Part shown: positions 47,764 through 54,905 of the stretch, piece after piece
Position numbering within the stretch: position 1 is the stretch's first letter
Layout of the letters: each line of letters begins with the position of its first letter
Source: Chroococcidiopsis thermalis PCC 7203
Lineage (GTDB): Bacteria; Cyanobacteriota; Cyanobacteriia; Cyanobacteriales; Chroococcidiopsidaceae
Assembly (NCBI RefSeq): GCF_000317125.1
Contig: NC_019695.1
Location: 1,848,336-1,912,335 of the forward strand
Direction: 5' to 3'
Length of the DNA: 64,000 nucleotides
Translations under genes and position numbers: made by a program
The notes under the pieces: model-generated
Told to the model about the DNA's origin: nothing
Seen by the model: the letters and a program-made list of their open reading frames with translations, nothing else
The model's database searches: none

Positions 47764-48309
47764 TTAATACACTGTAAAAGACTTAACCATTTGCTGTAGC
47801 TTTGGTGCGGCTTTTTGCCAACGCTGTTCCGTGGTGGAGGCGTTGAAAGTAAAGAGTTTGCCACGACTAACGGCAACACTAGCAAGATTGTGCCGTTGTT
47901 GCTGATTGGGTAACTTTACAGCATATTCTAGAATGTAGTAAGTTTTCCCGTTATAGTCTTGCTGCCCAGCATTGACTAATTCTGCTTCTCGTCCTGAATC
48001 AGGCGGTGCGATCGCGCTTTTGCCGAGTTTATAACCCACATCGCCAGGAGTTCCCAAATCGGCTAGGGTTTTGCCATCTGCTATGGAACCGATAACCACA
48101 GAAGCATTTTCTGTGGTTTCAATCAAATCGTGCAATACGATATCGGGACCGTCTGTCACTTTAACTGGAAGCCAGCCATTAGGGTACAAAAACTCATATC
48201 CATCAACGCTATCGACAAAGCTTTTGAGTCCAGCAGTTGATAGTACGCAACCCGATAGACTCAGCGCTATCAGTACTACAAGTAAAATCGATGCAATCCG
48301 TTTCAACAT
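47764..48309 (-). CDS. psbP: PsbP-like lipoprotein (CyanoP)
   Basis: CyanoP is a lumenal lipoprotein involved in photosystem II assembly. The signal ends in a lipobox (LIALSLSGC), so the mature protein would carry a lipid on Cys. The PsbP fold is recognised by FVDSVDGYEFLYPNGWLPVKV, VLHDLIETTENASVVIG and YYILEYAVKLPNQQQRHNLASVAV. I chose the ATG at 48309 (MLKRIAS); ten more codons upstream are open. It is divergent from the guanidine locus. Confidence 0.92.
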   Translation of the reverse strand: MLKRIASILLVVLIALSLSGCVLSTAGLKSFVDSVDGYEFLYPNGWLPVKVTDGPDIVLHDLIETTENASVVIGSIADGKTLADLGTPGDVGYKLGKSAIAPPDSGREAELVNAGQQDYNGKTYYILEYAVKLPNQQQRHNLASVAVSRGKLFTFNASTTEQRWQKAAPKLQQMVKSFTVY

Positions 48310-48635
48310 TTTAATAGTAAGTAGTGAGTGTGGGAACAAGTAGAGACGTTACATGTAACGTCTCTACACTGATAACTGACAACTGATTTGTATTGTCCCA
48401 TCCCAGTAACCTTCACGACTCCAGAAAGATAGCAGACAGTTATGTGATGAAATTTAGATATTTACTAAATTTAGTAACATTTAATACAGTTGTCTGATAC
48501 GGCGGTTGATAATGTCGCTATTAGCAGGTTGTATACAGCATTCAAATACTACAGAGAAGCAAACTCAAAAGTAAACAGAGTTTGCTTTCAATTAAGTATG
48601 GAATACCGCTAAAAGACAAGTATATAATACACAAG
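48310..48635. other. psbP-guanidine locus spacer with promoter
   Basis: The psbP side carries a palindrome of the ACGTTACATGTAACGT family (48341-48366) and GATAACTGACAACTG repeats. A TATAAT box at 48623-48628 lies about ten bases ahead of the conserved riboswitch sequence and is the likely -10 element. No clear -35 is seen. Confidence 0.6.
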
Positions 48636-48826
48636 CTTCTAGGGTTCCGGTTTGTAGCGTCTCAGCTTACGCTGTTAGCTCGCTTAGCAAATGCAGGTCC
48701 AAGAGAAGCAAACTGGCTATGCTAAAAATTTTCTGAGTTTTTAGTTGAGTAGCGAGTGACACGGAAGGAGAAAAGCCTGGGAGGAATATCAGTTGTGACG
48801 ACTGATGTTATACTCCTGGGCTTTTT
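48636..48826 (+). promoter_or_regulatory. Guanidine-I (ykkC) riboswitch with expression platform
   Basis: The conserved ykkC sequence blocks appear in order: CTTCTAGGGTTCCGG (48636-48650), GGTCCAAGAGAAGCAAACTG (about 48690-48710), and ACACGGAAGGAGAAAAGCC followed by TGGGAGG (48760-48784). The 3' block is also the 5' arm of an intrinsic terminator. Guanidine binding should hold the block in the aptamer, prevent the terminator and switch on the downstream guanidine hydrolase gene. This is by comparison with the known class; no measurement is available. Confidence 0.9.
48774..48826 (+). terminator. Riboswitch-controlled intrinsic terminator
   Basis: AGCCTGGGAG pairs with CTCCTGGGCT, and ATATCAGT with ACTGATGT inside, followed by CTTTTTGC. 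There is no plus-strand gene upstream, so its only role can be to stop the leader transcript when guanidine is absent. Confidence 0.88.
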
Positions 48827-48886
48827 GCATAATTAGCGACCTAATCTAGTTTGAAAAATTTTGAAAAATTAAGTGAGGGCGATCGC

Positions 48887-50089
48887 ATGACTCATAATTC
48901 TGAAAATCCTTTGTTTCAGAGTCCAGACAATAACAATCATCAACCCCCTACTGAAGCCCAACGCGCTTTAGAATTAGAAACACGACTGCCGATGACAGGA
49001 TGGCAGCAAGAGGTATCGAAAGGGATAGAATACGGATTAGAAGCAGCACAGAGTATCCGCGATCGCACGATTCCTACCTTTTCTCGTGGTGAGTTACCCC
49101 ACTACGCCGGAATTAATACTTTCCTCAAAGCCCCATACTTAGAAGATGTGCGTCAGGTAGGAAATTACGATGTGGCGATCGTTGGCGTTCCCCATGACTC
49201 CGGTACGACCTATCGCCCTGGAACCAGATTTGGACCTCAAGGTATTCGCCGCATTTCTGCTTTGTACACGCCTTATAACTTTGAGTTGGGTATCGATTTA
49301 CGCGAACAAATTACAATTTGCGATGTGGGAGATATCTTCACCATTCCCGCCAACAACGAAAAATCCTTCGATCAAATTTCTAAAGGCGTTGCCCATGTTT
49401 TCAGTTCGGGGGCATTTCCAATTATTCTGGGTGGCGATCACTCGATTGGTTTCCCCACGGTAAGGGGTGTATGTCGCCATTTAGGAGATAAAAAAGTTGG
49501 TATCATTCACTTCGATCGCCACGTAGACACCCAAGAAACCGATTTAGACGAACGGATGCATACTTGCCCGTGGTTTCACGCCACTAATATGAAAAATGCG
49601 CCAGCTAAGAATTTAGTCCAACTGGGCATTGGTGGTTGGCAAGTCCCAAGAAACGGGGTGAAAGTCTGTCGCGATCGTGCTACCAATATTCTCACAGTTA
49701 CAGATATCGTCGAAATGGGCTTAGACGCAGCCGCAGAATTTGCGATTCAAAGAGCAACAGACGGTACAGACTGCGTTTACATCAGTTTTGATATCGATTG
49801 TATAGATGCAGGATTTGTTCCTGGTACTGGCTGGCCCGAACCGGGCGGTTTGTTACCCCGCGAAGCCCTGTCACTACTGGGTAAAATCGTGCAAAAAGTC
49901 CCCGTTTGCGGTCTAGAAGTTGTGGAAGTATCGCCCCCTTACGACATCAGCGATATCACCTCTCTAATGGCAACCCGCGTAATTTGCGATACAATGGCGC
50001 ATCTTGTCCTATCGGGACAACTACCCCGCAAAGAGAAACCAGCTTACATTCATCCCGAATCCCAACCCGAACTTGTGGCTTGGACTTAG
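48887..50089 (+). CDS. gdmH: Guanidine hydrolase GdmH (ureohydrolase family)
   Basis: The protein belongs to the arginase/agmatinase superfamily and has its metal ligands: H185 (GGDHS), D210, H212 and D214 (HFDRHVDT), D302 and D304 (DIDCID). Position 211 is Arg where agmatinases usually have Ala. The extended N-terminus, the riboswitch and the hypA, hypB and transporter genes match the nickel-dependent guanidine hydrolase of Synechocystis (Sll1077), which converts guanidine to urea and ammonium. Start: ATG 48887, with GAGGG seven bases before it; an upstream TTG frame exists. Automatic annotation as agmatinase (SpeB) would be misleading. Confidence 0.9.
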   Translation: MTHNSENPLFQSPDNNNHQPPTEAQRALELETRLPMTGWQQEVSKGIEYGLEAAQSIRDRTIPTFSRGELPHYAGINTFLKAPYLEDVRQVGNYDVAIVGVPHDSGTTYRPGTRFGPQGIRRISALYTPYNFELGIDLREQITICDVGDIFTIPANNEKSFDQISKGVAHVFSSGAFPIILGGDHSIGFPTVRGVCRHLGDKKVGIIHFDRHVDTQETDLDERMHTCPWFHATNMKNAPAKNLVQLGIGGWQVPRNGVKVCRDRATNILTVTDIVEMGLDAAAEFAIQRATDGTDCVYISFDIDCIDAGFVPGTGWPEPGGLLPREALSLLGKIVQKVPVCGLEVVEVSPPYDISDITSLMATRVICDTMAHLVLSGQLPRKEKPAYIHPESQPELVAWT

Positions 50090-50265
50090 TTTGTCATTTG
50101 TCATTTGTCATTTGTCATTTGTCATTCGTCATTTGTCATTGGTAGTTGACGGTAAACGCTACACTCCGTGAAGACGGTTGATGGTTGACGGTTGTTTTTT
50201 GCTCCCTCAGCTCCCTCAGCCCCTCAGCTCTCTTTCCCCTGCTCTCTGCTCCCTACTCCCTCTCT

Positions 50266-50628
50266 ATGCACGAAACCGACATGACCAAAGCGCTGATTCT
50301 TACCGTGCGCGACTGGTGGGAAGCACAGCCAGAAAAACCCCAAATCTCCCGAATTCACCTAATTGTAGGTCGGTTTACCTGCGTAGAGCCTGCCAGTTTG
50401 GAATTTGCCTTTGAAGTTCAAACGCGCAATACCTTTCTTGCAGGGGCAACACTAGCAATTCAAGAAACACCCTTAATTGCCTTTTGCCATCATTGCCAAC
50501 AAGAATATCGTCCTGAAATTGGACTGCAATATGCTTGTCCGCAGTGTAAATCTCCTATGGAAGACATTCGCTCTGGACGAGAACTAAAAATCGATCGCAT
50601 TGAATATTCAAATAAGGATGAAGGGTAA
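50266..50628 (+). CDS. hypA: HypA-type nickel metallochaperone of the guanidine locus
   Basis: The 120-residue protein starts with the invariant MHE, whose His binds nickel, and has a zinc site with two CXXC motifs (CHHC and CPQC) near residues 73 and 94. HypA normally serves [NiFe]-hydrogenase or urease. Here, between gdmH and hypB, it probably supplies nickel to the guanidine hydrolase, as described for the Synechocystis cluster. The frame extends upstream into CTCCCTCAGC repeats, which are not coding. Confidence 0.9.
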   Translation: MHETDMTKALILTVRDWWEAQPEKPQISRIHLIVGRFTCVEPASLEFAFEVQTRNTFLAGATLAIQETPLIAFCHHCQQEYRPEIGLQYACPQCKSPMEDIRSGRELKIDRIEYSNKDEG

Positions 50629-50732
50629 TTGGTAATTGGTAATTGGTAGTTGCTCCCTTACCTCCCTTGTCTCCCCCCTCTCCCTTGTCTACCTTGTCTC
50701 CCTTGTCCTAACCACACCCCACACCCCTAGTT

Positions 50733-51434
50733 ATGCACCAAACATTTGACGCTGCCCTCGGGATTAATTTACTCCATGCCAATCAGGAAGGAGCTGACCA
50801 CAACCGCACCCATTTTGATGAGTGGGGAATTACCTGTTTCAATGTTATGAGTAGCCCTGGCGCTGGTAAAACAGTATTACTCGAAAAAACATTGGCAGCT
50901 TTAAAAGACGATCTCAAAATTGCTGTCATTGAAGGTGATATGACTACTGAATTGGATGCCGATCGCCTGCGTCAATACAATGTACCTGTAATCGCAATTA
51001 ATACTGGACGTTCTTGCCATTTAGACTCAAAAATGGTGGCAGGTGGCATTCATCAATTAGAACATCAATACAATCCTGCTGATTTCGATTTAGTCCTAGT
51101 AGAAAACGTTGGAAATTTAGTTTGTCCGGCTGAATTTGAAGTAGGCGAACACGCCAAAGTTGCTTTACTAAGTGTTACGGAAGGAGAAGATAAACCGCTG
51201 AAATATCCAATCATGTTTCGCGAAGCTGATTGCTTGCTCATTACCAAAATCGATTTAGCAATCCATTTAGATATGAACATTGACACAATAGTGGCAAATG
51301 TACGTCAAATTAACCCAAACGTGAAGATTATTCCCGTATCGGCGAAGACGGGAGAGGGTTTAGCAGTATGGTTTGAATGGGTGCGATCGCAAATTGCTAA
51401 AAAAGAGCTAGAGGTCAGTAGAATCAGAGATTAG
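50733..51434 (+). CDS. hypB: HypB-type GTPase nickel chaperone of the guanidine locus
   Basis: This SIMIBI-class GTPase has the P-loop SSPGAGKT (about residues 40-47), [21 protein letters not shown] with conserved Cys-His, [16 protein letters not shown] and NKxD-like TKID. The His-rich N-terminus of some HypB proteins is absent. It works with HypA to load nickel, here most likely into GdmH. A spacer of heptamer repeats (50629-50732) separates it from hypA. The upstream ORF is cotranscribed by orientation. Confidence 0.92.
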
Positions 51435-51685
51435 AAAAGAGAAAATATTAGTTTTTAAATCTAAAAATAGAAATTTTGGCATACTTAATATATGCCGAAG
51501 TTTCTGCTGTAACCGTCCAACTTTTTTAGAAAAATATTAAATAACTAAAAGCTTCAAATTCTCTAAAAAGTGTAGCAAAAGTAACGGATAAAAAAAACTT
51601 ACTCCGTTAGTCTAAAGCGTATTAGATTGTAAGATTTTTAGCTGAAAGATCGCGTCAGTAAATACACTTTTTAGTAGAAAAAGCA
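51435..51685. promoter_or_regulatory. Leader of the guanidine transporter operon
   Basis: Two short inverted repeats occur: GGCATA/TATGCC (51478-51496) and TAACGGA/TCCGTTA (about 51581-51608). A GTATTAGATTGTAA sequence at 51619-51632 is one base away from the NtcA consensus GTA-N8-TAC, with a TAAATA box at 51659. NtcA control would suit a nitrogen-scavenging transporter but is weakly supported. Confidence 0.35.
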
Positions 51686-52726
51686 ATGAAACTGCGATCG
51701 GTAATTCAATCAATTTTGCTTTTTGTCATCGGTCTGGCGATCGCAGCAGGTTGCACTAATCCCGCCGTTTATATTACCACTACCACCGATGTTGCTGCTT
51801 CTGGTGATGCTACTCCTAACGCTGCTAGCTTGGGATTCAGTGCGTGGCCTGGTTGGCTTCCTTGGCAAGTTACCCAAGAGCAAAAACTCTTTGAAGCAAA
51901 CAAAGCTTCAGTCAATTTGAAATGGTTTGACGGCTATTTAGAATCTATTAATGCTCTCACAACCGAACAAATTAATGCCAATAGCCAGACGCTCAACGAT
52001 ACAATCAGTGCCGTTTCCGGTGGTGCAGATAAAGTCGTCGTACTCGTTAACGACAACTCTACAGGTAACGATAAGGTCATCGTTCGCGAAGGTATCAATA
52101 CAATTGCCGATTTGAAAGGCAAAAAAGTTGCCGCAGAAGAAGGCGCTGTAGATCATTTCCTATTGTTATTAGAAATGAAAAAAGCAGGCATGAAACCAGA
52201 AGACATCCAATTTGTCCCCTTAGAAACAGGACAAGCCGCAGCCGCTTTTGTCGGTGGACAAGTAGATGCAGTTGCAGTGTTTGCACCATTTACCACTCAA
52301 GCCTTAAAGCGTCCTGGCAGTAAAGAACTCTTTAGTTCCAAAGAATTTCCTGGAGCAATTCCCGACCATCTAGTTGTCAGCCGTCAGTTTTTAGAAGCAA
52401 GTCCCGAAAAAGTGCAAGCAATGGTCGATTCCTGGTTCGCTACTCTCGATTACATGCAAAAAGAACCAGCCAAAGCAACAGAAATTATGGCAAAACGTGC
52501 CGGGGTTAGCGTTGCAGAATATGAAGAATACGCCAAAGGAACCAAGATATTTACTGTGGAAGAAAACCTCAAAGCCTTTCAACCAGGTAACAACATGACT
52601 TCGCTGATGTATGCAGCCGGAGAAATGACTAAATTTCTTGAAGAAGTCGGCTTAGCTAAACAAAAACCAGACCTAACTAAACTCTTCGACGATCGCTTTG
52701 TGAAAGCATACGCCAAGAAACAGTGA
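51686..52726 (+). CDS. ABC transporter substrate-binding lipoprotein (NMT1/SsuA type), guanidine locus
   Basis: The 346-residue protein has a lipoprotein signal (LFVIGLAIAAGC) and a type II periplasmic-binding fold (SLGFSAWPGWLPWQVTQEQK, VKWFDGYLE-like LKWFDGYLESINAL, IADLKGKKVAAEEGAVDHFL, VPLETGQAAAAFVGGQVDAV). The family takes up taurine, nitrate or similar small solutes. Its position after gdmH-hypA-hypB suggests guanidine or a guanidino compound as substrate, as proposed for the equivalent Synechocystis genes. Confidence 0.85.
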   Translation: MKLRSVIQSILLFVIGLAIAAGCTNPAVYITTTTDVAASGDATPNAASLGFSAWPGWLPWQVTQEQKLFEANKASVNLKWFDGYLESINALTTEQINANSQTLNDTISAVSGGADKVVVLVNDNSTGNDKVIVREGINTIADLKGKKVAAEEGAVDHFLLLLEMKKAGMKPEDIQFVPLETGQAAAAFVGGQVDAVAVFAPFTTQALKRPGSKELFSSKEFPGAIPDHLVVSRQFLEASPEKVQAMVDSWFATLDYMQKEPAKATEIMAKRAGVSVAEYEEYAKGTKIFTVEENLKAFQPGNNMTSLMYAAGEMTKFLEEVGLAKQKPDLTKLFDDRFVKAYAKKQ

Positions 52727-52850
52727 CCAGTTATCAGTTAGCAGTTCTCAGTGAAGAAAGGGTGTAGAGAAGCGGTAGTTGGTAGTTGGTAGTTGGTAGT
52801 TGTTCCTGAAGTTCCTGAAACTTCCTTGTCCCAATTTGTAATTTTTCAAT

Positions 52851-53690
52851 ATGAACACAGGCTCGATGCGTCCCCCATCTAATCCAAAAACGCTTAGCCC
52901 GACGGTTTTTTGGCGGTTGGCTGAAGATATTCCCAGACCATTAAACACCTTACTAGTTGCGACTTCTATCGGATTACCGTTGCTGATTTGGTGGCTGGTG
53001 ACAACATTTGGTAGCGTAGACCCCAAGTTTCTACCCTCGCCTGCTAAGGTACTCGAAGCATTTGGGCGATTGTGGAGGACTCGCGAACTGCTGAAGGATA
53101 CTGTAGCAAGTCTCTGGCGAGTGGGCGTAGGGTTTTTGCTAGCAGTCGTGTTGTCGATTCCAGTTGGGGTGTTGATGGGCAGTTTTGCGAGTATTCGTGC
53201 CTTATTAGAACCATTATTTGGTTTGATGCGCTACATGCCCGCGCCTGCTTTCATTCCTTTGCTCATTCTCTATTTAGGAATTGGAGAAGAACCGAAAATC
53301 ACTTTAATTTTCATCGGCGTGTTTTTCTTCAACTCCTTAATGGTGATGGATACGGTCAAGTTTGTATCAAAAGATTTGATTGAAGCTGCCTATACTTTAG
53401 GTGGCGATCGCTGGCAGACACTAACTCAAGTTATTTTTCCTCACGTTTTGCCAGGAATCATTGATGCTTGTCGAATTAACCTTGCAGCCGCATGGCAATT
53501 AGTCATTGTTTCAGAACTAATTGCTGCAACCGAAGGTTTGGGACGTAGAATCAGCGTCGCGGGTCGATTCCTCAGAACTGATGAAATTTTTGTCGGCTTA
53601 ATTGTCATTGGAATTATCGGACTCACTTTTGACCTCTTATTTCAATGGCTCCTGCGCGTTTCTTGTAAGTGGGCAAGTCAGAAGAGATGA
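52851..53690 (+). CDS. ABC transporter permease, guanidine locus
   Basis: The 279-residue BPD-type inner-membrane permease has about six hydrophobic helices. The coupling motif is EAAYTLGGDRWQTLTQVIFPHVLPGI (in part EAAYTLGGDRWQ), which contacts the ATPase. It belongs to the SsuC/TauC/NrtB group. The start may be M1 or M6 (MRPPSNPK). It is followed after about 95 bases of repeats by its ATPase. Confidence 0.9.
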   Translation: MNTGSMRPPSNPKTLSPTVFWRLAEDIPRPLNTLLVATSIGLPLLIWWLVTTFGSVDPKFLPSPAKVLEAFGRLWRTRELLKDTVASLWRVGVGFLLAVVLSIPVGVLMGSFASIRALLEPLFGLMRYMPAPAFIPLLILYLGIGEEPKITLIFIGVFFFNSLMVMDTVKFVSKDLIEAAYTLGGDRWQTLTQVIFPHVLPGIIDACRINLAAAWQLVIVSELIAATEGLGRRISVAGRFLRTDEIFVGLIVIGIIGLTFDLLFQWLLRVSCKWASQKR

Positions 53691-53787
53691 ATTAGTGGTT
53701 AGTGACTGGCGACTAGTAACTAGATAAAGAATCCAGCCACTAGCCACCAGTCACTAGCTACTCACCAACTACCAATTACCAATTACC

Positions 53788-54564
53788 ATGTATCTACAAA
53801 TCACCAAACTCCATAAAAATTTCGAGACAAAATCGGGAACGTTGGCAGTCCTCAAAGACATTAATATGTCAATCGAGCGGGGTGAATTTATCTGTGCTGT
53901 GGGTGCATCGGGTTCGGGTAAGTCTACTCTACTGCGCCAGATTGCCGGACTCGATTTGCCAACAGCGGGAGAAGTGAAAATCGATGGCGTGCGCGTTCAA
54001 GGACCAGGACCAGATCGGGGTATGGTGTTTCAGCACTACACGCTTTACCCTTGGATGAACGTACAGGAAAATGCTGAATTTGGACTCAAACTTCAAGGCT
54101 GGTCAAAACGGGAACGGCGAGAACGAGCCAGCTACTACCTCAGCGTAGTTGGACTGACTAAGTTTGCCAAATCTCTACCCAAGGAGTTATCTGGTGGAAT
54201 GAAACAACGGGTAGCGATCGCCCGCGCTCTCGCCTCGGAACCTAAAGTATTACTGATGGACGAACCTTTTGGTGCTTTAGATATTCACACTAAAGAGTCC
54301 ATGCATGAATTCATGCTGGATCTGTGGCAGCGTACCAACATCACCATTTTCACGATCACCCACGATGTGGAAGAAGCTGTCTTCCTCTCGAATCGGATCT
54401 ACGCTCTCGGCGCTCGTCCTGGTACGGTAAGAAAAGAGATTTCAATTAAACTCCCCGAACGCACCCACACCGTCAAGCGTCATTCTATATTCCACGACTA
54501 CTGCGACGAATTGATGGATTTACTCCGGGGACACTCACAGGAAGCCCTGGCTGTGGCTTCTTAA
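53788..54564 (+). CDS. ABC transporter ATP-binding protein, guanidine locus
   Basis: The 258-residue ATPase is of the SsuB/TauB/NrtD type: Walker A GASGSGKST (about residues 41-49), Q-loop MVFQHYTLYPWMNV, signature LSGGMKQR, Walker B LLMDEPFGALD and switch TITHDVEEA. It completes the transporter with the two preceding genes. Its stop overlaps the end of the convergent VOC gene by four bases. Confidence 0.92.
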   Translation: MYLQITKLHKNFETKSGTLAVLKDINMSIERGEFICAVGASGSGKSTLLRQIAGLDLPTAGEVKIDGVRVQGPGPDRGMVFQHYTLYPWMNVQENAEFGLKLQGWSKRERRERASYYLSVVGLTKFAKSLPKELSGGMKQRVAIARALASEPKVLLMDEPFGALDIHTKESMHEFMLDLWQRTNITIFTITHDVEEAVFLSNRIYALGARPGTVRKEISIKLPERTHTVKRHSIFHDYCDELMDLLRGHSQEALAVAS

Positions 54565-54905
54565 GCGGGTTGAAGTAAACTGAGTAAATGTCCGTCAGGA
54601 GTCCGCATGGCGGCGACTTTTCCAAAAGAAGGTTCTCGGACGCGCCCTTCGAGTTTAGCGCCCATATTTTCTAGATTGGCGATCGCCCCATAAACATCGT
54701 CTACATGAAAGCTCAAAATCGGAGAATTCCCCGTGTGCGCTTGACTCTCCGCAGCATGTAGCGCGATCGTCGTACCATCAGCATCTAATTCTGCCCATCC
54801 AGGGCTTGCCATTTTTACTTTTAGTCCTAATCCTTCTTGATAAAACTTCACCGTTGCTAGAACGTCCGTCACCATCAACATGACGTGCTTAAACTGTGCT
54901 GTCAT
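54561..54905 (-). CDS. VOC-superfamily (glyoxalase/bleomycin-resistance-like) protein
   Basis: This 114-residue protein has two beta-alpha-beta-beta-beta modules: FKHVMLMVTDVLATVKFYQE with the metal His, and LSFHVDDVYGAIANLENMGA followed by AAMRTPDGHLLSLLQP. Such single-domain VOC proteins dimerise. The substrate is unknown. It runs opposite to the transporter genes and overlaps their end, so it is probably unrelated to guanidine use. Confidence 0.85.
   Translation of the reverse strand: MTAQFKHVMLMVTDVLATVKFYQEGLGLKVKMASPGWAELDADGTTIALHAAESQAHTGNSPILSFHVDDVYGAIANLENMGAKLEGRVREPSFGKVAAMRTPDGHLLSLLQPA

What the first reader, a model, noticed from the sequence alone, without database searches (positions are those of the whole stretch)
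48636..54564. Complete guanidine-sensing, uptake and hydrolysis locus
A guanidine-I riboswitch, a ureohydrolase, hypA, hypB and a three-gene ABC transporter lie in one direction. Order and content match the nickel-dependent guanidine hydrolase cluster of Synechocystis. Default annotation would give agmatinase and hydrogenase maturation genes, hiding the real role: scavenging nitrogen from guanidine. The transporter's substrate is still an inference.
Basis: partly seen in the sequence, partly recalled or inferred. Interest (0 to 1): 0.7.

Follow-up and report, generated by a model that had tools for sequence, protein, structure and literature searches.

The report
Riboswitch-controlled guanidine import and hydrolysis operon
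This cyanobacterial locus is a faithful copy of the already described operon that senses guanidine, imports it and splits it into urea and ammonia with a nickel enzyme; the less expected part is a candidate nitrogen-starvation promoter in front of it, of a kind that many relatives also carry.

Summary
The finding is confirmed and its interpretation supported. Window 48628-54564 (+) holds a Guanidine-I (ykkC) riboswitch with a terminator, gdmH, hypA, hypB and a three-gene ABC transporter. GdmH is 87.7% identical to Synechocystis Sll1077, keeps the published guanidinase residues (T97/W305 = T108/W316), and groups with Sll1077 and the Nitrospira guanidinase, apart from the genome's own agmatinase. 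The riboswitch is real (E 1.8e-10) but falls 1.7 bits under Rfam's cut-off, probably because of two long loops. The six-gene order is in print for Synechocystis and marine Synechococcus: a new member of a known kind.

Added here. (1) The transporter's guanidine link no longer rests on gdmH alone: 59 of 60 sampled genomes with this permease subfamily carry GdmH or a Guanidine-I riboswitch, and it also sits under such riboswitches without gdmH. (2) An NtcA-type promoter (48474-48515) precedes the riboswitch; the box recurs in 47 of 65 scored relatives against 2.6 expected (but 1 of 7 in one set), suggesting an AND gate of nitrogen need and guanidine. (3) Some relatives have a sodium:solute symporter in the ABC transporter's place. 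I did not find the last two in papers I could read; two key papers were not held.

The parts
48474..48515 (+). Candidate NtcA-activated promoter: GTA-N8-TAC-N22-TAATGT
   Evidence: Only exact match in the 64 kb window, but 28 of 100 shuffles also give one or more (mean 0.33); the support comes from relatives: box within 300 nt before the aptamer in 47 of 65 scored, 2.6 expected
48623..48628 (+). TATAAT, possible second -10 element directly before the aptamer
   Evidence: Sequence; no -35 recognised; untested
48628..48785 (+). Guanidine-I (ykkC) riboswitch aptamer with two enlarged loops
   Evidence: RF00442 61.3 bits, E 1.8e-10, gathering score 63
48775..48826 (+). Intrinsic terminator overlapping the 3' side of the aptamer: GCCTGGGAG / CTCCTGGGC then TTTTT
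   Evidence: Sequence, fold, same arrangement in 60 of 69 relatives scored
48887..50089 (+). gdmH, nickel-dependent guanidine hydrolase (by relation), 400 aa
   Evidence: Best PDB match 7esr/7oi1 at 789 bits, then 9fek at 591, next family 175 bits; T108 and W316; trees
50266..50628 (+). hypA/ghaA, nickel metallochaperone, 120 aa
   Evidence: TIGR00100 over cut-off; one of two HypA genes in the genome, the other lying 0.6 kb after NiFe-hydrogenase matches
50733..51434 (+). hypB/ghaB, nickel-insertion GTPase, 233 aa
   Evidence: TIGR00073 over cut-off
51686..52726 (+). ABC transporter substrate-binding protein, probable lipoprotein (IAAGC near the N terminus), 346 aa
   Evidence: TIGR01728 over cut-off; distant sequence relation to sulfonate-, nitrate- and taurine-binding proteins
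52851..53690 (+). ABC transporter permease, 279 aa, class A of two classes
   Evidence: PF00528; class A/B split; 59 of 60 genomes with this subfamily have GdmH or a Guanidine-I riboswitch
53788..54564 (+). ABC transporter ATPase, 258 aa
   Evidence: PF00005

Best explanation
This is a gdmH operon for using guanidine as a nitrogen source. Transcription starts under nitrogen limitation from an NtcA-type promoter and stops at the leader terminator unless guanidine binds the aptamer and holds the sequence that would otherwise form the 5' arm of the terminator. Read-through makes a guanidine importer (SBP, permease, ATPase), the guanidinase GdmH and its own nickel-loading pair HypA/HypB. GdmH splits guanidine into ammonia and urea; urease elsewhere in the genome releases the rest. 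Shown here by sequence: riboswitch, terminator overlap, GdmH identity with its specificity residues, a HypA separate from the hydrogenase-linked one, a urease gene, gene order. Taken from published work on relatives: enzyme reaction, nickel dependence, riboswitch ligand. Inferred: NtcA control, one transcript through all six genes (spacers 97-251 bp), transporter substrate.
For: Riboswitch; terminator overlap; GdmH 87.7% identical to Synechocystis GdmH and 67.4% to Nitrospira guanidinase, T and W residues kept in 80 of 80 named relatives, trees with 99% SH-aLRT; separate agmatinase scoring 294.8 vs cut-off 174.3, urease, second HypA beside NiFe-hydrogenase matches; six-gene order in 44 of 80 relatives, counting one with a split permease hit; 53 of 58 GdmH genomes carry a Guanidine-I riboswitch somewhere in the genome; permease subfamily with GdmH or the riboswitch in 59 of 60 genomes; NtcA box enrichment. 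Literature passages.
Against: The riboswitch is under Rfam's gathering score. The NtcA box lies 165 nt before the aptamer core, farther than in most relatives (median 109 over 49 boxes, 6 of 49 farther); one exact hit in 64 kb is itself weak (0.33 expected); and a set of 7 gdmH-linked loci of two families had the box in only 1. The spacer before the SBP is 251 bp, so the transporter could have its own promoter. No expression, binding or enzyme data for this organism.
Confidence: 0.93

Rival explanations
1. The ureohydrolase is a true agmatinase of polyamine synthesis and hypA/hypB serve a hydrogenase, as default annotation would suggest.
For: TIGR01230 agmatinase score 173.0, only 1.3 bits under its cut-off; hypA and hypB over their hydrogenase-maturation cut-offs.
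Against: The genome has another ureohydrolase far over the agmatinase cut-off (294.8) and NiFe-hydrogenase matches with a HypA of their own nearby. The window protein has Thr108/Trp316; the four other ureohydrolases aligned have Ser or Thr, and Thr. It groups with guanidinases.
Confidence: 0.02
2. The ABC transporter imports another compound (for example taurine, a sulfonate or nitrate) and lies here by coincidence.
For: SBP falls in the SsuA family over its cut-off and its four PDB matches are named sulfonate-, nitrate- or taurine-binding; the 251-bp spacer.
Against: Orthologues sit behind Guanidine-I riboswitches without gdmH, alone or before guanidine-carboxylase-type genes; 59 of 60 genomes with the permease have GdmH or the riboswitch.
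Confidence: 0.05
3. The operon mainly detoxifies guanidine, with nitrogen scavenging secondary.
For: Sll1077 mitigates guanidine toxicity, and co-expressing it stabilises a guanidine-producing Synechococcus 7942 (PMC8390497, passages).
Against: An importer gene set in the operon, a urease in the genome and a starvation-type promoter box fit scavenging better.
Confidence: 0.1

Closest known systems
Synechocystis PCC 6803 gdmH operon sll1077-1082 (gdmH, ghaA, ghaB, ABC importer)
   Same: Guanidine-I riboswitch, same six genes in the same order (passages); GdmH 87.7% identical over 374 residues
   Different: The aptamer here scores under Rfam's cut-off. Transporter class, promoter and aptamer loops of Synechocystis could not be compared: that genome was not fetched.
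Marine Synechococcus/Prochlorococcus guanidinase cluster (Syn-eCAG_001 / Pro-eCAG_004)
   Same: Riboswitch, speB2, hypA, hypB, Tau-like ABC transporter (PMC10119275, passages)
   Different: Most of those Synechococcus/Cyanobium genomes add a Rieske Fe-S protein gene downstream; here the next gene is a glyoxalase-family gene on the other strand
Nitrospira inopinata guanidinase locus
   Same: Riboswitch-controlled guanidinase with the same two specificity residues (67.4% identity; PMC11410670, passages)
   Different: An APC permease in the region in place of an ABC transporter, and no nickel chaperones found in the genome
Guanidine carboxylase operons with ABC importer
   Same: Guanidine riboswitch plus an ABC importer; in three unnamed cyanobacterial genomes the importer is of the window's class
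   Different: Guanidine is broken down by carboxylase, deaminase and allophanate hydrolase (PMC12186494) and not by GdmH

Membership tests
GdmH guanidine hydrolase | Groups with Sll1077 and not with agmatinases | tested here: met
   Clade with 7esr and 9fek, 99% SH-aLRT in two quick trees
GdmH guanidine hydrolase | Thr97 and Trp305 (Synechocystis numbering) | tested here: met
   T108 and W316 align to them; residues named in PMC11410670 (passages)
GdmH guanidine hydrolase | Nickel-dependent hydrolysis of guanidine to urea and ammonia | not testable with these tools
   Needs an enzyme assay
Guanidine-I riboswitch (RF00442) | Significant full-length match to the covariance model | tested here: met
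   61.3 bits, E 1.8e-10, model 1-107
Guanidine-I riboswitch (RF00442) | Score at or above Rfam's gathering score of 63 | tested here: not met
   1.7 bits short. This is a curated reporting threshold, not a biological feature
Guanidine-I riboswitch (RF00442) | Transcription control by an overlapping terminator | tested here: met
   GCCTGGGAG / CTCCTGGGC plus T5; by sequence only
GhaA/GhaB nickel-loading pair | HypA and HypB genes next to gdmH | tested here: met
   TIGR00100 and TIGR00073 over cut-off
Guanidine ABC importer | Transports guanidine | not testable with these tools
   Only association:
Agmatinase (TIGR01230) | Score at or over the equivalog cut-off of 174.3 | tested here: not met
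   173.0, while the genome's other ureohydrolase scores 294.8
NtcA-activated promoter | GTA-N8-TAC about 22 nt before a TAN3T -10 element | tested here: met
   48474-48515; the consensus is recalled, not taken from a call; binding by NtcA not tested

The most novel reading that the evidence does not exclude
In many cyanobacteria the guanidine operon is an AND gate: an NtcA promoter that needs nitrogen limitation feeds a guanidine riboswitch, so cells spend on guanidine only when they lack nitrogen and guanidine is there. The import module behind it is exchangeable: two ABC classes, or a sodium:solute symporter subfamily that I did not find linked to guanidine in the papers I could search.
Probability: 0.5. 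Interest if true: 0.5.

Novelty: new member of a known kind. Interest (0 to 1): 0.32.

Why it matters
Automatic annotation would give this locus agmatinase-like, hydrogenase-maturation and sulfonate-transport names, and the default Rfam cut-off drops the riboswitch, so the guanidine role would be lost in such a genome. The comparative data make three points testable: that this ABC subfamily is a guanidine importer, that an SSS symporter can stand in for it, and that nitrogen status and guanidine are both read before the operon is made.

Tried and rejected
Agmatinase reading: rejected. Sulfonate/taurine/nitrate transporter reading: kept as a low rival. The simple promoter and terminator scan found fewer sites than its shuffles and did not list the leader terminator, probably because its hairpin is outside that scan's loop rule; not used. 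A relaxed anchor scan gave a poor match in L016 that I do not count as a clear riboswitch. In the first tree the row G270_paralog was probably the wrong reading frame (I took the longest ORF) and fell inside the GdmH clade; the second tree used the frames, and it fell outside. The careful tree search was not finished; both trees are quick ones with very long branches to the outgroups, so only the GdmH clade is used from them.

Rows dropped before counts. One search uses lists made. Left out: four permease rows at 43-44% identity (second hits in G368, G308, G062 and the only hit in G360); GdmH fragments in G125 and G177; nine genomes with only weak 29-34% ureohydrolase rows; and the 60 riboswitch genomes of family f31, which lie outside the window's class and have no GdmH orthologue. 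With f31 kept in, 67 and not 7 of the 326 permease-negative genomes would carry a guanidine marker. The A/B class comparison left out the permeases of G085 and G241 (71% to the window).

NtcA box. Named loci: 65 of 80 scored, the 15 without a strict riboswitch match left out; shuffles there were order-1 Markov resamplings. Of ten gdmH loci without a riboswitch, 3 have a box within 500 nt. Unnamed gdmH loci: 29 given, 25 scored, 22 with the box; a set of 7 from families f25 and f4, also gdmH-linked by the coordinates and partly overlapping the former, gave 1 of 7; f31 gave 3 of 19 scored of 23 given. An earlier one-strand version gave 10 of 10, 0 of 3 and 2 of 12 and is replaced. Riboswitches apart from gdmH: 9 of 16.

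Literature limits. Nelson 2017, Funck 2022, Sinn 2021, Itzenhauser 2025 and Giner-Lamia 2017 were not held and are known here only as listed in other papers. Absence of the SSS link rests on (0 papers; 2 papers, not opened; 0; 357 papers with two of three terms, 20 listed; not opened for this). Absence of the NtcA link rests (13 papers) and on passages in 6 of these 13.
Full report
Observation. The window contains, on the + strand, a Guanidine-I riboswitch (48628-48785), gdmH (48887-50089), hypA (50266-50628), hypB (50733-51434), and an ABC transporter made of a substrate-binding protein (51686-52726), a permease (52851-53690) and an ATPase (53788-54564). The default Rfam scan of the whole window reports only a tRNA, because the riboswitch scores 61.3 bits against a gathering score of 63; a scan of 601 bases gives it E 1.8e-10 over the full model. 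It is the only Guanidine-I match in the genome. Two loops hold 30 nt where the model has 4, which probably costs the score; the same two stretches vary widely in length among relatives. In a sample of 386 genomes of the phylum, 118 of the 121 with a match were over the cut-off, and the window's genome is one of the three that were not.

Switch anatomy. The 3' end of the aptamer, GCCTGGGAG (48775-48783), is also the 5' arm of a terminator hairpin closed by CTCCTGGGC (48813-48821) and five T. The leader folds better than 199 of 200 shuffles. The same overlap was found in 60 of the 69 relatives scored, with 7 negative and 2 where the motif was not found. Guanidine binding should therefore prevent termination; this riboswitch class is described as permitting transcription only with guanidine (PMC11410670, passages).

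Enzyme. The best solved structures are the Synechocystis guanidinase 7esr/7oi1 (789 bits) and the Nitrospira guanidinase 9fek (591 bits); the next family scores 175 bits. Identities are 87.7% and 67.4%. The two residues named for guanidine specificity, T97 and W305 in Synechocystis (PMC11410670), are T108 and W316 here; proclavaminate amidinohydrolase, guanidinobutyrase and E. coli SpeB have Ser and Thr, and the genome's own second ureohydrolase has Thr and Thr. All 80 named relatives keep the pair: 76 by a strict motif, and 4 that miss that motif only by Ser to Cys three residues before the Thr. Two quick trees put the window protein, Sll1077 and 9fek in one clade at 99% SH-aLRT, without the genome's second ureohydrolase, which scores 294.8 bits against the agmatinase model with cut-off 174.3.

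Genome context. The genome (6.69 Mb, 3 contigs) has a urease, and NiFe-hydrogenase matches at C1:2034497-2035753 followed at C1:2036362 by another HypA. So the HypA next to gdmH is an additional copy, as expected for a dedicated nickel-loading pair (GhaA/GhaB in PMC10094980, passages).

Relatives. Of 80 named loci, 43 have gdmH-hypA-hypB-sbp-perm-atp in that order and 1 more has it with a split permease hit; 23 have only gdmH-hypA-hypB on the forward strand, some cut by contig ends, and one of these (L086) has the transporter genes divergently upstream. A strict riboswitch motif lies upstream in 65 of 80, and in 3 more by a relaxed scan, plus one doubtful case, L016. Ten loci scanned by Rfam at the gathering score had none (a sub-threshold copy like the window's would be missed there), and L013 has only 393 nt upstream, 23 of them N. 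In the 386-genome sample 58 genomes have GdmH, 53 of them with a Guanidine-I riboswitch.

Transporter. In the loci compared, the transporters fall in two classes. Class A (the window's) has permeases at least 73% identical among themselves and at most 71% identical to class B: 24 class A loci besides the window (17 with gdmH, 7 without) and 33 class B. Class A is not tied to gdmH. It sits behind its own Guanidine-I riboswitch with no gdmH or carboxylase gene in the fetched stretch in L152, L156, L159 and L162, and before carboxylase-type operons in L155, L163 and L164. There, model matches identify both UAAP genes and the urea/guanidine-carboxylase-type gene in L155 and one UAAP gene in L163; the rest are similar by eye. 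Of 60 genomes with this permease subfamily, 59 have GdmH or a Guanidine-I riboswitch, the exception being G229. That separates the transporter's guanidine link from the enzyme's. A review already calls the Synechocystis transporter a guanidine importer (PMC12186494, passages).

Transporter exchange. In G170 an orthologue stands alone behind its own Guanidine-I riboswitch. Six of 386 genomes have this symporter; all six have GdmH, and five of the six lack the ABC permease, against 2 of the other 52 GdmH genomes. In G159 and G215 the symporter is elsewhere, without a riboswitch motif. Comammox have an APC permease in the same genomic region as their guanidinase (PMC11410670), so swaps of the importer are plausible.

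Promoter. Window 48474-48515 reads GTA-N8-TAC-N22-TAATGT, the form I recall for NtcA-activated promoters. It is the only exact match in 64 kb, where 0.33 are expected and 28 of 100 shuffles have at least one, so alone it is weak. Among 65 named relatives with a strict riboswitch, 47 have GTA-N8-TAC within 300 nt before the aptamer core; resampled sequences give 2.6 (sd 1.5, largest 7 in 300 rounds), and 16 also have a -10 element at N20-24 against 0.28 expected. Elsewhere in the same loci 80 of 2458 windows have the box, and other spacings give 0 to 11 of 65. Unnamed gdmH loci: 22 of 25 scored. Against it: 1 of 7 in a set of gdmH-linked loci from two families, 3 of 10 gdmH loci that lack the riboswitch, and 9 of 16 for riboswitches apart from gdmH. 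Family f31, outside the class, has 3 of 19. In Synechocystis the operon falls when ammonium is in excess, though that paper ties the effect to Slr1821 and not to NtcA (PMC10094980, passages). The reading is an AND gate: nitrogen need starts the transcript, guanidine lets it pass.

Verdict. The finding is correct and already explained by published work on Synechocystis, marine Synechococcus and Nitrospira. This genome adds a member whose aptamer the default Rfam scan misses. The promoter and the symporter are the parts worth a follow-up; whether Giner-Lamia 2017 or Itzenhauser 2025 already report either I could not check.

Noticed in passing
L046:9655-11157, L050:8221-9708, L087:9297-10753, L161:323-1822, L192-L194: Sodium:solute symporter subfamily in the place of the ABC transporter after hypB, or alone behind a Guanidine-I riboswitch (L161).
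   Followed up: yes
L155, L163, L164: Guanidine-I riboswitch before an ABC importer of the window's class, then UAAP-type genes and a carboxylase-type gene; a second riboswitch before the latter genes was located in L155 only.
   Followed up: partly
L027:9440-10996, L045:9745-11337: Extra gene between hypB and the SBP: a protein with weak SBP-family similarity and a C-terminal OmpA domain, possibly an envelope-anchored binder.
   Followed up: partly
L167-L169 and other f31 genomes: Sixty roughly 2 Mb genomes of a family outside the window's class carry a Guanidine-I riboswitch; in the three loci read it lies next to a gene of about 105 aa, SugE-type SMR exporter by model match in two of them.
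   Followed up: partly
L059:7001-8206: gdmH with no hypA, hypB or transporter hit and no Rfam-level riboswitch in the 15 kb held.
   Followed up: no
G332:C38, G177:C1:2651189, G125:C1:2923467, G119, G368: Split, partial or stop-interrupted gdmH copies: repeated loss, or assembly errors.
   Followed up: no
window 50090-50265, 50629-50732, 52727-52850, 53691-53787: Spacers inside the operon hold short repeated words (such as tgtcatt, ttggtaattgg) seen by eye.
   Followed up: no
window 54561-54905 (-) and 47764-48339 (-): Flanking genes on the other strand: a glyoxalase-family protein, overlapping the end of the ATPase gene by 4 bases, and PsbP.
   Followed up: partly
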